Shown: piece after piece, positions 16,814 through 42,559 of the stretch | How the letters are laid out: every line of letters starts with the position of its first letter | How positions within the stretch are numbered: position 1 is the first letter of the stretch | From: Deltaproteobacteria bacterium | GTDB lineage: Bacteria > Desulfobacterota > Syntrophia > Syntrophales > UBA2185 | DNA length: 54,752 bases | Assembly (NCBI GenBank): GCA_026388545.1 | Contig: JAPLJS010000077.1 | Coordinates: forward strand, 1 to 54,752 | Reading direction: 5' to 3' | Notes under the pieces: generated by a model | Told to the model about the DNA's origin: nothing | Databases searched by the model: none | The model's input: the letters and a program-made list of their open reading frames with translations, nothing else | Program-made: the position numbers and the translations under genes

Positions 16814-16887
16814 ATTGAGGGGGCCTTATGAAGGTATTCTTCACGCATTTTCGTCACTCAGAAACAGTTATCGTAAAAGGAGTGCAC

Positions 16888-19800
16888 ATGAGAGAAAAAC
16901 GCATCATCGGATGGGCCTTATTGGCCGCCACTCTGCTCTTCTTTGGACCCCTGAGAGTCAGCGTCCAGGCACAATCCTCCCCCGAAAACACAAGTACGAT
17001 TCAGACCAAGAGCAGTTACGAAGCCAAAGTGGCGGCCGTTCGGACTGCGTTTGCTACAGTGAGGAAAGCCCTTGATCTCTCCAACACGTCAGGACAATCA
17101 TCCACCCCGGAGTCGGATCTGGGCGAACCCTCATGCCAGAATGTCGGCGGCAGCAGTGGCGGAGGGGGAGGATCGGCGTCTGCGTTGAGCGCCAGCCGAT
17201 CTGCCCAGGCGTCATGCGTGCCATCCTCCAAAGGGGCGCCTGTCTGGCAGGTGAACATGGTCAATCTGAACTTCTACATGGCGGATACGCCGTTGTGGTA
17301 CAATAGCCCGATTGGGCCTTCGGTGGAGCTGAAGCTGAGCTACAATTCGCAAACGTCTCTCGGCGGACCTTTCGGAAGCAAGTGGCAGTTGAATTACAGA
17401 AGCTATCTCTACCGGGCGGTGGATAATAACGGAGCATTTGCCGGCATCATGGTCGTCATGCCCGACGGGAATCAGGATCTTTATGTTCCCATCGGTGCGG
17501 GCGTCTTCAAGCCCCCCTATCATGTTTTCAACACTCTCACGGAACTTACGGAAAACCATTTTGAGCTCAAATTCCCCGACGGCGAGGTATACGTCTACAA
17601 CATTCCCACGGGAACAGCCGTCGACATCTCGCTTCTCACGGAGATGAAGGACGCCTATGGGCAGAAGCTGAGCATGGGCTATGATGCGAATGGTAAATTG
17701 ATGACGATTACCGATGCGCTGGGCAAAGTGACAACCCTTTCCTATAACAACGATGGGCTTGTAATCCAGGCTGCCGACCCCTTCGGCCGCACTGCTGCGT
17801 TTGAGTATGACGCCAACAAAAATCTGGCGAAAATAACCGACATGGGCGGTTACTGGACAAGTTTCACCTACCGTCACTATGTGTTGACGGATTACTATCT
17901 GGAAAGTCTGACAAATGCCGGGGGCAGTTGGGGATTTTATTTCGAGCCGGCCGATGGCCTTGAGGGTACAGATTCCTACCCCGCCCCGGAAACCTCGATG
18001 TCTTACAACTCCCGCATCACTGTGACCAATCCCTTTGGCGGCAAGGAAGAGTACTATCGCTCGGGCTCATTATCCTGGTATATCAGTCCTAAGAATTATA
18101 TTCCTTACATAGATGCAAGCAACAATAATTACGCAAGCAATGCTCCCAAAACCTTATATGATATTATAGGAATGGAACTTGCTTCCATCGAATCCCCTGA
18201 AGGAGACGTCACGGATTTCACGTTCGACGACACCGGTAATCTTACCGGCATATCCAATGGCTATTTGAACATTCATTATACTTATAATACGATGGGGAAA
18301 GTCACATCTATCGCTGATTCTAATAATGCGGTTACGACCCTCAGCTATGCGGCAAACGACGTTGATATGACCGGAATCACTAATGGACTGGGGACCATCG
18401 TTCTTGCCTATAATACCGCACACGATATCACATCCCACACGGACCGTTCGGGGAATACGGCATCAATAACCTACAATGCTTTCGGAAATATCATCTCGAA
18501 GATCGATCCGCTTAACATAACGACGAATTTTATCTATGATGCGAATTATCGTCTCACCCAGATCACCCGGAGTGGGCAGGTCCTGAATAGCTATACCTAC
18601 GACGCCCTCGGAAGAGTCCAGACATACACCGATGCCACCGGAATGACTATCACCTATGAATACAACATCCTGAACGATGTTACGAAGATCACCTATCCCG
18701 ACGGCAGATACGTAAGCATAACCTATTCGATCGTATTTCCCCATCTTATCACAGCCATCACAGACCGGGGCGGAAGAACGGCCCAATACGTTTATAACTC
18801 TTCACAAAATATTACCCGGATAGTGCATCCGGACGGAGGGATAACCGGGTTCGTTTATGACGCCAACGGGAACCAAATTCAATTGATCGATCCCAAAGGT
18901 CAGGTCACCTCATTTGATTATGACAATAGCAACAGGCTCATCACGAAAACCTTTGCCGATGGAACAGCCTCTTCATACACTTATGATTCCTTAAGCCGGA
19001 TAGCTTCCTACACCGGTCCCAGAAACCTGTCCACCTCTTATACGTTTAATTCAAATAATAACCTGGCATATATATCGCACTCAACAAGTGATGTGAAATA
19101 CTACACAATGCCTTCCATGTATCAACACGATGCATACAGGCGTCTTACCGGTATGACCGACGCCTTGGGCACAACCGCGTACAGCTACAACGCCGATTCT
19201 CTTGTTACAAGCATCGACGGACCCCTGGACAATGATATCATTACTTATCAGTATGATGCGAAAGGCCAGGTGAAGAGCTACTCATTGGAGCTGGGCCAGA
19301 CCGTATCCTATACTAACGATGCCCTTGACCGGTTGACGGCAATCAACGGAGGCGCCGGGAATTTTACTTACTCCTACACTGGTGCAAGCCCGCTGGTCAC
19401 GCGACTGACCCGGCCGAACGGAAGTTATACCGATTACCAGTACGACTCTCTGAATCGTCTTGTTTCGGTAGCGAACAAGAAATCCTCGGGCGAAATAATC
19501 AGCCAGTACGGTTATACCTATAACGATAAGGACCTTATCGCCGGCGAAACCGCAACCAGCGGAGCGCCCGTAACGTCTTTTGTCAACGGGCAGACAACTT
19601 ACAGCTACAACAACATAAACGAGCTGCTCAGCGCTACAAATCCTGCTCAGACCTTCACTTACGATGCCGAAGGTAACATGACCCAATGGAACAGTCCTGA
19701 AGGTAAAACATTTACCGGAATCTATGATATCAGAAATCGCCTGGGATCGACTGGATGGGAATATTTTACCACCATCCCGACCCTGGAATCCGAATCCTAT

Positions 19801-20697
19801 AAAGTGTCCTATGAGTATGGGGATGACGGCCATATAGGAGAGAAGGAAGTGGAGTATTCCAAATATTCCACAAGCACATATTGGACCAAAAAGGTCATGT
19901 ATGTGGCAGACGATTATTTGCCCTTGCAGGAACGCGATGATAGCAACAACATTCTCAGTGAATATACCTGGGGGCTCCATCAAGGCGGGGGCATAGGGGG
20001 GCTTTTGAGCCTGAAACAGGGAGGGCAGAATTATTACTACCTCTACGATGGAAAGGGCAATGTAACGGCGGTAATTGACAGCTCTCAGACGGTGGTGGCC
20101 GCATATACCTACGATCCCTTCGGCAATTTATTGACCAGGACAGGAGCCCTGGATCAGCCCTACCAATTTTCCACAAAACCCTATGATCTGGCAACCGGCC
20201 TCTCGTATTTCGGGAAGCGTTTCTATTCACCATCCGCCGGGAGATGGACGACAAGGGACCCGATAGGAGAAAGGGGCGGGTTAAATTTATACGGCTTTGT
20301 CGGCAATAATCCGATCAATTATATCGATCCAATCGGGTTAATATGGCCTTTTAGTGACGATAAACCAATACCAAACAAAAAAGAGAGAACGAATTTTGGC
20401 CCTGTACCTTTAGATGAGGATGATGGCCCAAGTGCCAGAGAAATTACGAAAGTGACGACGGAAGTAAATAAAGCTCTGAAAAAAGGCAAATGTAGCGATA
20501 AAACCGAATACTCAGACATGACCAAGAAACAAAAAAAGGAAGCTGAAAAAAATACGAAAAAACTTCAAACTCCTCAGGAAGAAGCAGCCGACACGATTTC
20601 GACTGAAATGCAAGGAAAAGGAAAGACAACTCAAGAAAAGCCTGTAGAAAAAAAAGGGAAGCAAACAGTACAGGATTGGACTGGAGGCAAAAAATAG
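16888..20697 (+). CDS. Secreted YD-repeat / RHS-core protein
   Basis: 1269 residues. ATG 16888 has AAAGGAG just upstream and begins a signal peptide (cleavage after about VSVQA). After a Ser/Gly-rich linker come dozens of YD repeats (GxxxxYxYDxxGrl type) between roughly residues 240 and 1080. The RHS-associated core follows: YLYDGKGNVTAVID, YTYDPFGNLL, LSYFGKRFYSP, RWTTRDPIGERGGLNLYGF and NNPINYIDPIG. The last 118 residues are a charged Lys/Glu-rich variable tail. RHS proteins encapsulate a C-terminal toxin in a beta-barrel. The tail matches no toxin I recognise and may be truncated by a frameshift at the A6 tract 20689-20694. No immunity gene is evident. Confidence 0.88.
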   Translation: MREKRIIGWALLAATLLFFGPLRVSVQAQSSPENTSTIQTKSSYEAKVAAVRTAFATVRKALDLSNTSGQSSTPESDLGEPSCQNVGGSSGGGGGSASALSASRSAQASCVPSSKGAPVWQVNMVNLNFYMADTPLWYNSPIGPSVELKLSYNSQTSLGGPFGSKWQLNYRSYLYRAVDNNGAFAGIMVVMPDGNQDLYVPIGAGVFKPPYHVFNTLTELTENHFELKFPDGEVYVYNIPTGTAVDISLLTEMKDAYGQKLSMGYDANGKLMTITDALGKVTTLSYNNDGLVIQAADPFGRTAAFEYDANKNLAKITDMGGYWTSFTYRHYVLTDYYLESLTNAGGSWGFYFEPADGLEGTDSYPAPETSMSYNSRITVTNPFGGKEEYYRSGSLSWYISPKNYIPYIDASNNNYASNAPKTLYDIIGMELASIESPEGDVTDFTFDDTGNLTGISNGYLNIHYTYNTMGKVTSIADSNNAVTTLSYAANDVDMTGITNGLGTIVLAYNTAHDITSHTDRSGNTASITYNAFGNIISKIDPLNITTNFIYDANYRLTQITRSGQVLNSYTYDALGRVQTYTDATGMTITYEYNILNDVTKITYPDGRYVSITYSIVFPHLITAITDRGGRTAQYVYNSSQNITRIVHPDGGITGFVYDANGNQIQLIDPKGQVTSFDYDNSNRLITKTFADGTASSYTYDSLSRIASYTGPRNLSTSYTFNSNNNLAYISHSTSDVKYYTMPSMYQHDAYRRLTGMTDALGTTAYSYNADSLVTSIDGPLDNDIITYQYDAKGQVKSYSLELGQTVSYTNDALDRLTAINGGAGNFTYSYTGASPLVTRLTRPNGSYTDYQYDSLNRLVSVANKKSSGEIISQYGYTYNDKDLIAGETATSGAPVTSFVNGQTTYSYNNINELLSATNPAQTFTYDAEGNMTQWNSPEGKTFTGIYDIRNRLGSTGWEYFTTIPTLESESYKVSYEYGDDGHIGEKEVEYSKYSTSTYWTKKVMYVADDYLPLQERDDSNNILSEYTWGLHQGGGIGGLLSLKQGGQNYYYLYDGKGNVTAVIDSSQTVVAAYTYDPFGNLLTRTGALDQPYQFSTKPYDLATGLSYFGKRFYSPSAGRWTTRDPIGERGGLNLYGFVGNNPINYIDPIGLIWPFSDDKPIPNKKERTNFGPVPLDEDDGPSAREITKVTTEVNKALKKGKCSDKTEYSDMTKKQKKEAEKNTKKLQTPQEEAADTISTEMQGKGKTTQEKPVEKKGKQTVQDWTGGKK

Positions 20698-20845: not shown

Positions 20846-20887
20846 TCTAAGATGACAATAAAGCAATCCATTGAGAGGGGAAATGTT

Positions 20888-21280
20888 ATGAAAAATAAGA
20901 TCTTGATTTCTTTGGTTTTTGTCTTATTTTTTATCGGGCTGTCTGCGGTTACACTTTTTGCATACGAAACGACCTATACCTACGACAAGCTCAACCGCCT
21001 GACGTCAGCCACCTATAATGCGGGGACGAGCCGTAATACGATTATCTACCAGTACGATGCAGCGGGAAACAGGCTTTCAAAAATAACAAAAATTATCGTG
21101 ACAGGCGATCTCAACGGGGATACCTTCATCACTCTGGCTGACGCCATTATGACCATGCAGGTCCTCTCAGGGATTACCCCCAATCAATCGATCGTTCAGA
21201 GTGCCGAAGTCAACAGCGACGGCAAGATTGGAATGCCCGAGGCGATCTACATTCTTCAAAAAGCGGCAGACCTAAGGTAG
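20888..21280 (+). CDS. Small secreted YD-repeat and dockerin-like protein
   Basis: 130 residues. ATG 20888 (upstream GAGGGG) begins a signal peptide of about 25 residues ending near TLFA. One and a half YD repeats follow (YTYDKLNRLTSATYN, YQYDAAGNRLSKI). The C-terminal half (GDLNGDTFITLADAIM and AEVNSDGKIGMPEAIYIL) carries two calcium-binding DxNxDxxI loops as in type I dockerin. It reads as an orphan mini-RHS module with a dockerin tail. It follows the big RHS gene by about 190 bases and may have been derived from it. Confidence 0.75.
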   Translation: MKNKILISLVFVLFFIGLSAVTLFAYETTYTYDKLNRLTSATYNAGTSRNTIIYQYDAAGNRLSKITKIIVTGDLNGDTFITLADAIMTMQVLSGITPNQSIVQSAEVNSDGKIGMPEAIYILQKAADLR

Positions 21281-21558
21281 GCTTGAGTAAAGATTTCTTT
21301 TGATAATCATTGATGTCTTCAATGTACCATGAGTGTGGAGTAGGTAGGTGTAAGCCAGTCAAGGCTCAATTCAACAGATTATCAACTCAAATGTACGGAT
21401 GAACCTTTATTAAAACGGTGCTCATCTGCTATAATATTTTTATAAATCCACGATCAATGTCGCTGACTTAAGAATATTATCTCTTTCAAGTCCCCCTTTG
21501 TAAAGGGGGATTCAGGGGGATTTTAATTGCATTCCGTAAAATCTCCCCCAACCCCTCT
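21281..21558. other. Intergenic region with dispersed repeat
   Basis: Apart from the repeat at 21492-21574, I see no gene here. The short AT-rich part at 21400-21460 contains no clear promoter. Confidence 0.5.
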
Positions 21559-21574
21559 TTAGAAAAGAGGGGGG
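21492..21574. repeat. Dispersed foldback repeat, CCCCCTTT family, copy 1
   Basis: Two hairpins in one imperfect palindrome. The left hairpin has arms CCCCCTTT (21492-21499) and AAAGGGGG (21502-21509). The right hairpin has arms CCCCTCTTT (21552-21560) and AAAGAGGGG (21564-21572). The middle parts (GGGGGATTTT and AAAATCTCCCCC) also pair with each other. A second copy with the same layout lies at 42330-42408. Its right edge overlaps the 3' end of purF and supplies the stop codon. Confidence 0.85.
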
Positions 21575-22878
21575 TCAAAGTGCTTAAGTCTGCCTTTCAA
21601 AGACAGGTAGTTCAGGCTATCCAGCCCGATGAACCGGGTAATAGCTTCAACATTATCCTGCTGCGCGGCGATAAGCTCACCTTTCGACGAAAAATCAATC
21701 CCGTACGGACAGGGATGGCGTGTGGGCGGACAACTTACGACCATGTGGATTTCCTTCACACCGTTTTCACGAAGATTACGGACACGGTTGCGGCTGGTTG
21801 TTCCCCTGATGATGGAATCTTCCACAATCAGAACCCGTTTCCCGAAAAGCAAAGGCTTCACGGGGTTTAATTTGACCCGCACACCAAAATCCCTCATGGG
21901 CTGGGTCGGCTGAATGAACGTGCGCCCCACATAATGATTGCGGATCATGCCCATCTCAAAGGGAATGCCGCTTTCTTCAGCATAGCCTAAAGCGGCGTAG
22001 TTGCCTGAATCGGGAAACGGCATGACAAGGTCTACATCCGGCCTGTATTCCTTCGCCAAGCGGTGTCCCAGACGTTTCCGGCACATGTACACATTCTCAC
22101 CGAAGACCTGGCTGTCGGGCCGCGCAAAATAGATCAGTTCAAAGATACAATGGGCATGTCTTATCTGAGGGAAGGGAGTAATGCTGTGTAATCCTGCCTG
22201 GTCAATAATAATAATCTCGCCGGGCTTTACATCGCGCAGGTACTTGGCGCCCACCAAATCGAATGCGCAGGTCTCGGAAGCGATAACCCACCCGCCATTG
22301 AGTTCTCCGAGGGAGAGAGGACGGAAGCCACGGGGATCGCGCGCTGCAATCACTTTGTCTTTCGTCAGCATCACGATACTGTATGCTCCCTGAACCTGGG
22401 TGAGTGCCTTTGTCAGGGCTTCATCGATTCCATTTTTTAGATGCTTGGCCATCAGGTGAACGATCACTTCACTATCCATCGTGGACTGGAAAATGGAGCC
22501 CTTGTCTTCGAGTTCGGAACGCAATGCCTGGGCATTAATGAGGTTTCCGTTGTGGCCCAGGGCGTAGTAGTCGTCGGCGTGATGCACCAAAAACGGCTGG
22601 GCATTGGAAAGAACAGAAGACCCTGTTGTCGAATAACGAACATGTCCAATGGCTAAGTGACCGGGCAACTTAGAGAAGGTATCTTCCCGGAACACTTCAG
22701 ATGCCAGGCCCATACCCTTATGTCCCCATACCTGACAACCATCCGCCGTGTTGATGCCCGCACTCTCCTGTCCACGATGCTGGAGGGCAAAGAGACCGAA
22801 AAATGTGATACGCGCCGCTTCCGGTGCTCCGTAAACAGCGAATACACCGCATTCTTCCCTTGGTCTTCTCTCTTCCAT
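21559..22878 (-). CDS. purF: Amidophosphoribosyltransferase, shortened C-terminus
   Basis: 439 residues from ATG 22878. An upstream start would add 26 residues, but GGGG before 22878 and the nearby CGVF favour 22878. The propeptide MEERRPREE precedes catalytic Cys-10 (ECGVFAVYG), as in class II (Ntn) glutamine amidotransferases. Motifs HRGQESAGI, GHVRYSTTGSS and the PRPP loop VLIVEDSIIRGTTSRN are intact. It makes phosphoribosylamine, the first purine step. Two Fe-S ligand Cys positions of the B. subtilis type are present (IRHAHC, SCPPTRHPC), but the terminal CxxCF-G-YP segment is missing: the protein ends SLKGRLKHFDPPLF. The last few codons lie in the dispersed repeat. Confidence 0.9.
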   Translation of the reverse strand: MEERRPREECGVFAVYGAPEAARITFFGLFALQHRGQESAGINTADGCQVWGHKGMGLASEVFREDTFSKLPGHLAIGHVRYSTTGSSVLSNAQPFLVHHADDYYALGHNGNLINAQALRSELEDKGSIFQSTMDSEVIVHLMAKHLKNGIDEALTKALTQVQGAYSIVMLTKDKVIAARDPRGFRPLSLGELNGGWVIASETCAFDLVGAKYLRDVKPGEIIIIDQAGLHSITPFPQIRHAHCIFELIYFARPDSQVFGENVYMCRKRLGHRLAKEYRPDVDLVMPFPDSGNYAALGYAEESGIPFEMGMIRNHYVGRTFIQPTQPMRDFGVRVKLNPVKPLLFGKRVLIVEDSIIRGTTSRNRVRNLRENGVKEIHMVVSCPPTRHPCPYGIDFSSKGELIAAQQDNVEAITRFIGLDSLNYLSLKGRLKHFDPPLF

Positions 22879-41782: not shown

Positions 41783-42559
41783 GGGCCGCTGTCAGCGGTC
41801 CGCCGGTAAACGCGAGACAGAATGTAGCCGGTCAGCTTCCCGTAAGGCGGGCAAGCGACCGAGCGAATCAGTCCGGCACAGCCGGACAGCGAGGAAGCGA
41901 GAGCGTGGAGATGCGCCATTAATGTTTGTTTTATTATAATGTATCATGGCGCAGCTCAAGCGGCCCGCCTTACAATTAATATACGTAGTACGCTTTTCCT
42001 GGTCCCCTGAAAAAAGCTGAACGAAATTTGAGTAATTTGTATAGGTATTTGAAATATTTGTCAAATAATTGTTAGGTTGTTCCGTAATATCTGTTTATTA
42101 TCACAAAATAGATAGTACGTATAATATGGGATTTTGTACCAGTGACACCATTTCAGAAGTGATTTCCCATGCAGTATATCCGGCAGTGAGCTCCAGAAAG
42201 TAATCCTGTTGAAATTGATGAACTCTTAACAAGTCAAAAACCATGTCACTCAGGTCCCCGCCTTCGCGGGAAACCATCATGTTCTGTGGTGACACCGCGA
42301 AGGCATGCAAATTTTCGATTCTATTAAGTCTCCCTTTTATAAAGGGAGATTTAGAGGGATTTTGCAGAGGGAATAAAAAATCCCCCCGGCCCCCTTTAGA
42401 AAAGGGGGTGAGTAAAGCTACTTTCGTATTAATGACAATTTGAGACGAAACTCAACTTTTTCGAAACCGTCAACTTTTTAAAGTCAGGATTTCGAAAATC
42501 TTGTCTGTTATAAAATATTTAGGTTGCTGAAGATATGCCTCAGTTTCGAAGCGCCGTTC
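41783..42559. other. Non-coding region with nested inverted repeats and a dispersed repeat
   Basis: No gene larger than about 70 codons is convincing. Between 41697 and 41970 several exact inverted repeats interleave: 41697-41713 with 41827-41843 (17 bases), 41779-41790 with 41959-41970 (12 bases), 41912-41919 with 41946-41953 and 41871-41877 with 41881-41887. Next comes an AT-rich segment, then the dispersed repeat at 42330-42408. No integron integrase was found, nor any attI. Confidence 0.6.
42330..42408. repeat. Dispersed foldback repeat, CCCCCTTT family, copy 2
   Basis: Arms CTCCCTTT (42330-42337) and AAAGGGAG (42341-42348), then CCCCCTTT (42390-42397) and AAAGGGGG (42401-42408). Same layout and near-identical length to the copy at 21492-21574, so this is a repeat family. 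Confidence 0.85.

What the first reader, a model, noticed from the sequence alone, without database searches (positions are those of the whole stretch)
21492..21600. Dispersed repeat replaces the 3' end of purF
The purF frame ends in SLKGRLKHFDPPLF, of which about the last five residues and the stop lie in the CCCCCTTT repeat. The CxxCF segment that holds two Fe-S ligands in related PurF proteins is missing. Insertion of the repeat into the gene end explains both. Enzyme stability may be altered.
Basis: partly seen in the sequence, partly recalled or inferred. Interest (0 to 1): 0.6.

Follow-up and report, generated by a model that had tools for sequence, protein, structure and literature searches.

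The report
Mobile repeat truncates purF gene
In an uncultured syntrophic bacterium, a short mobile DNA repeat and a neighbouring small deletion have cut off about the last 39 amino acids of PurF, the first enzyme of purine synthesis, removing two of the four cysteines that should hold its iron-sulfur cluster.

Summary
The purF frame (22878-21559, minus strand) matches relatives up to LSLKG, then reads ten residues (RLKHFDPPLF) and its stop from a dispersed repeat. All 108 relatives' PurF records with a readable tail keep 36-57 more residues with a CxxC; the window's has none. The repeat is a MITE: 146-147 bp, 18-bp inverted ends CAATGTCATTGACTTAAG, 12 other near full-length copies at 95-99% identity, target duplications up to 10 bp. 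At purF the far end of the element is intact, but the purF-facing end lacks its terminal 10 bp, there is no target duplication, and the lost purF tail is found nowhere in the genome. Best reading: the MITE landed at or just past the purF 3' end, and a deletion of at least about 130 bp fused the cut MITE to purF. A copy at the end of a ligA-like gene shows what a clean insertion looks like. This is the only above-cutoff PurF in the genome. Loss of two Fe-S ligands probably impairs it, but that is inference. An assembly error or strain mixture at this one locus cannot be excluded without reads.

The parts
21559..22878 (-). Truncated purF (amidophosphoribosyltransferase), likely start ATG at 22878, just after the carB stop; propeptide MEERRPREE then Cys; conserved to Gly at 21592-21594
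21455..21590 (.). MITE copy (136 bp of a 146-147 bp element); 2 differences from the family consensus apart from the lost end
21455..21472 (+). Complete terminal inverted repeat (CAATGTCGCTGACTTAAG), distal to purF
21583..21590 (-). Cut terminal inverted repeat facing purF (GACTTAAG remains; CAATGTCATT missing)
21590..21591 (.). Junction of cut MITE end with purF; no microhomology between consensus MITE and relatives' purF
21559..21591 (-). Ten-codon read-through into the MITE (RLKHFDPPLF) and TAA stop, which lies at the tip of a predicted hairpin
21445..21454 (+). Outer flank AATCCACGAT where one copy of a 10-bp target duplication should be; occurs once in the window, no partner at purF

Best explanation
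The repeat is a recently amplified, non-autonomous transposable element (MITE). One copy inserted at or just downstream of the purF 3' end. A later or accompanying deletion removed the outer 10 bp of the MITE's purF-facing inverted repeat, the target duplication, any spacer and about 39 codons of purF with its stop. Translation now runs ten codons into the MITE and stops there. Shown: MITE anatomy, cut end, missing tail, no remnant, no target duplication. Inferred: the order of events, and the consequence that PurF cannot bind a normal [4Fe-4S] cluster because two of four Cys ligands are gone, so it is probably less stable or inactive. The only other PurF-like gene (G000:C46) lacks the N-terminal catalytic Cys.
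For: Inverted ends and a length of 146-147 bp in 16 copies, plus four longer composites; 12 of these 20 have exact direct repeats of 7-10 bp against 0 of 380 mispaired flanks. Window copy: distal end complete, purF-side end cut. Copy at a ligA-like gene (L049) as internal control: insertion in the last codons, target duplication, old end GGCAAGAAGTAA still beyond the element. Tail absent from the genome, only a weak paralogue hit; no remnant in 21001-21600. Relatives uniformly intact. Cys ligands aligned to 1ao0 and 6lbp. Other copies of the same MITE are truncated too (L048, L051, L056). Recent: 2 differences from consensus in 136 bp.
Against: Single metagenome-assembled genome with no reads and no second genome of the genus, so the junction is not independently confirmed. 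purF shows no decay: dN/dS about 0.05-0.08 against relatives and 8 lineage-specific changes against 16 in G001, which fits a working enzyme as well as a very recent loss.
Confidence: 0.7

Rival explanations
1. Assembly chimera or strain mixture: the contig joins a purF fragment to a MITE copy from elsewhere, and the real or majority gene is intact.
For: Draft metagenome assembly of 128 contigs with 3.25% contamination; repeats are where assemblers err; the first enzyme of an otherwise present pathway is hit.
Against: The junction is not between two repeat copies: a cut MITE end meets unique purF sequence without microhomology, so repeat collapse would not create it. Twelve other copies carry matching target duplications, so the assembler read through this element correctly there; no near full-length copy lies at a contig end. 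No separate intact tail is in the assembly.
Confidence: 0.17
2. Simple insertion of the MITE into the purF coding sequence, with the distal purF remnant lost later on the far side.
For: The element sits at the truncation point; this MITE does insert at gene ends (ligA-like gene).
Against: The far-side terminal repeat is complete while the purF-side one is cut, the opposite of what loss on the far side alone would give; no remnant of the tail on the far side.
Confidence: 0.1
3. Recombination between two MITE copies moved the purF tail elsewhere in the chromosome.
For: Many near-identical copies available; the gene next to purF differs among relatives.
Against: Tail not found anywhere in a genome rated 100% complete; would not explain the cut inverted repeat.
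Confidence: 0.03

Closest known systems
QMITE1 and QMITE2 of Coxiella burnetii (PMC5896051)
   Same: Short elements with terminal inverted repeats and direct repeats (7-9 bp for QMITE2), strong stem structure, some copies truncated; they overlap the 3' ends of functional genes (pntAA, mutT, nagZ, enhC) and alter protein ends and stops.
   Different: Those are reported not to shorten proteins to a significant degree; here about 39 conserved residues with two metal ligands are lost. Sequences were not compared directly.
Enterobacterial RU-type small mobile sequences (PMC2759123, PMC2229807)
   Same: Short non-autonomous repeats found between and inside genes, adding residues.
   Different: Other hosts and other sequence; known to me here from the abstracts only.
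B. subtilis-class PurF with propeptide and Fe-S centre (1gph, 1ao0; Arabidopsis GPRAT2 6lbp, PMC7056826)
   Same: Catalytic Cys after a propeptide, PRPP loop, first two cluster cysteines.
   Different: The window protein lacks the C-terminal CxxC.

Membership tests
MITE | Terminal inverted repeats | tested here: met
   18-bp ends CAATGTCATTGACTTAAG in full copies; one end cut in the window copy
MITE | Target site duplications | tested here: met
   For the family: 12 of 20 copies, 7-10 bp exact, null 0 of 380; not for the window copy, whose purF-side end is deleted
MITE | Short, no transposase gene, many copies | tested here: met
   146-147 bp, 12 other near full-length copies at 95% or more
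MITE | Ends shared with an autonomous insertion sequence | tested here: inconclusive
   No matching ends around seven DDE_Tnp_1 genes; end matches in eight other genomes of the order are solo ends or short paired elements without an evident transposase, judged by eye from ORF starts
PurF, B. subtilis (Fe-S) class | TIGR01134 above cut-off | tested here: met
   478 bits against 350
PurF, B. subtilis (Fe-S) class | N-terminal Cys after short propeptide | tested here: met
   MEERRPREE-CGVF in the sequence; cleavage itself not tested
PurF, B. subtilis (Fe-S) class | Four cysteine ligands of the [4Fe-4S] cluster | tested here: not met
   Two of four present; the C-terminal CxxC is deleted. By descent it is a truncated allele of this class.
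PurF, B. subtilis (Fe-S) class | Glutamine-PRPP amidotransferase activity | not testable with these tools
   Needs an enzyme or complementation assay

The most novel reading that the evidence does not exclude
The truncated PurF still works: a MITE-plus-deletion event has turned an Fe-S-class PurF into a cluster-free enzyme with a transposon-derived tail, under continued selection. Strong sequence constraint on the rest of the protein, and its being the only above-cutoff PurF in the genome, do not exclude it.
Probability: 0.2. Interest if true: 0.5.

Novelty: new member of a known kind. Interest (0 to 1): 0.27.

Why it matters
It is a clear natural case of a MITE with an adjacent deletion shortening a core biosynthetic enzyme. 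If real, it asks whether the Fe-S cluster of B. subtilis-type PurF, which E. coli PurF does without, can be dispensed with in an anaerobe, or whether this lineage is becoming a purine auxotroph.

Tried and rejected
A rigid CCCCCTTT hairpin pattern found nothing, because the spacing I wrote does not fit the element. Looking for the autonomous partner through DDE_Tnp_1 genes and paired ends gave none; the end sequence is not in viral contigs. Terminator scan: none called at the MITE, though its RNA folds strongly, z -4.3. Literature on mutagenesis of the B. subtilis PurF cluster ligands was not found in the open library; my recollection that ligand changes give inactive or unprocessed enzyme is from memory. 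Structure prediction was not run: a model of the truncated chain would not tell activity. A first polarisation of amino-acid changes used an impossible threshold and was redone.

Full report
Setting. The window is contig C77 of a 3.28 Mb draft genome in 128 contigs, rated 100% complete and 3.25% contaminated. Its closest PurF relatives come from uncultured Syntrophaceae and related deltaproteobacterial genomes, nearly all metagenome-assembled. purF lies on the minus strand directly behind carB; the likely start is 22878 and the frame stops at 21559.

The observation. The window PurF is 89% identical to that of G001 and matches the relatives up to LSLKG. There all relatives continue with about 39 residues including CLACY or CKACF; the window reads RLKHFDPPLF and stops. 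In 108 records with readable tails (two collections that overlap in part) every one has the C-x-x-C and 36-57 residues after the YLS motif. The other two cluster cysteines are present.

The repeat. A search of the genome with 21450-21605 gives 57 pieces, of which 12 besides the window are near full length at 95-99% identity and share the same end towards purF. Reading the flanks shows that full copies go on for 10 more bases at the purF-side end, giving inverted ends CAATGTCATTGACTTAAG. Of 20 copies with both ends (16 of standard length and four longer composites), 12 have exact direct repeats of 7-10 bp outside the ends, against none of 380 mispaired flanks. This is a MITE, recently amplified: the window copy differs from consensus at 2 of 136 positions. 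The same ends occur sparsely in eight other genomes of the order, but no transposase was seen with them.

What happened at purF. The far end is complete. The purF-facing end stops at GACTTAAG; CAATGTCATT is gone and it follows purF directly after GGCA. No microhomology is seen. The purF tail is not on the far side, not in the window and not elsewhere in the genome. The far-side decamer AATCCACGAT has no second copy in the window. Insertion alone therefore fails; a deletion that removed both the MITE end and the gene end is needed. Judged from G001 it took about 120 bp of gene and 10 bp of MITE, plus any duplication and spacer. The copy at the end of a ligA-like gene (L049) is the contrast: its last codons GGC AAG AAT TCA ATG TCA TTG ACT TAA run into the MITE, and beyond the element the duplicated GGCAAGAA and the old stop are still there.

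Is it an artefact? The assembler passed through the copies with paired target duplications correctly, and no near full-length copy sits at a contig end. At purF a cut end meets unique sequence, which repeat collapse would not make. An error confined to this locus, or a minority strain, remains possible; I give it 0.17.

Consequence. TIGR01134 finds one PurF above cut-off in the genome, this one. The second, at C46, scores about 206-215 bits against a cut-off of 350, begins MGGLFG without the catalytic cysteine, and has counterparts in other genomes. purM is above cut-off; a purL homologue scores just below its cut-off (518 against 526) over nearly the whole model. The rest of PurF is under strong constraint. 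Because the event is young, this cannot tell a living enzyme from a fresh loss. Two of four Fe-S ligands are gone, so a normal [4Fe-4S] cluster cannot form by the coordination known for B. subtilis PurF (ligand assignment from general knowledge). I think reduced or lost function is more likely than full function, about 2 to 1 or more.

Known context. MITEs rewriting gene 3' ends are known, for example in Coxiella (PMC5896051). E. coli-type PurF works without a propeptide or Fe-S centre (PMC7056826). So the kind of event is known; the target gene and the loss of metal ligands make this instance mildly unusual.

Noticed in passing
G000:C46:64358-65746 (L031); L199-L202: A conserved PurF-like paralogue begins MGG[LF]FGV, with Gly in place of the catalytic Cys, but keeps a C-terminal CxxC; seen in five genomes. 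Function unclear, perhaps ammonia-dependent or not a PurF.
   Followed up: partly
window 42320-42415: A second pair of CCCCCTTT hairpins, similar in core to the MITE but without its terminal repeats; part of a wider family of such hairpins.
   Followed up: no
L046, L047, L054, L057, L190: Copies carrying an extra module with ATGTCCAAACTCCAG between duplicated CCCCCTTT hairpins, a composite form of the element.
   Followed up: no
L049 (G000:C46:30932-31078): MITE inserted in the last codons of a ligA-like gene, changing the end to NSMSLT and providing the stop.
   Followed up: yes
window 16828-20697 and 20852-21280: Large YD-repeat (RHS-like) gene followed by a small, probably secreted protein with a YD-repeat and a dockerin-like motif, next to purF.
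   Followed up: no
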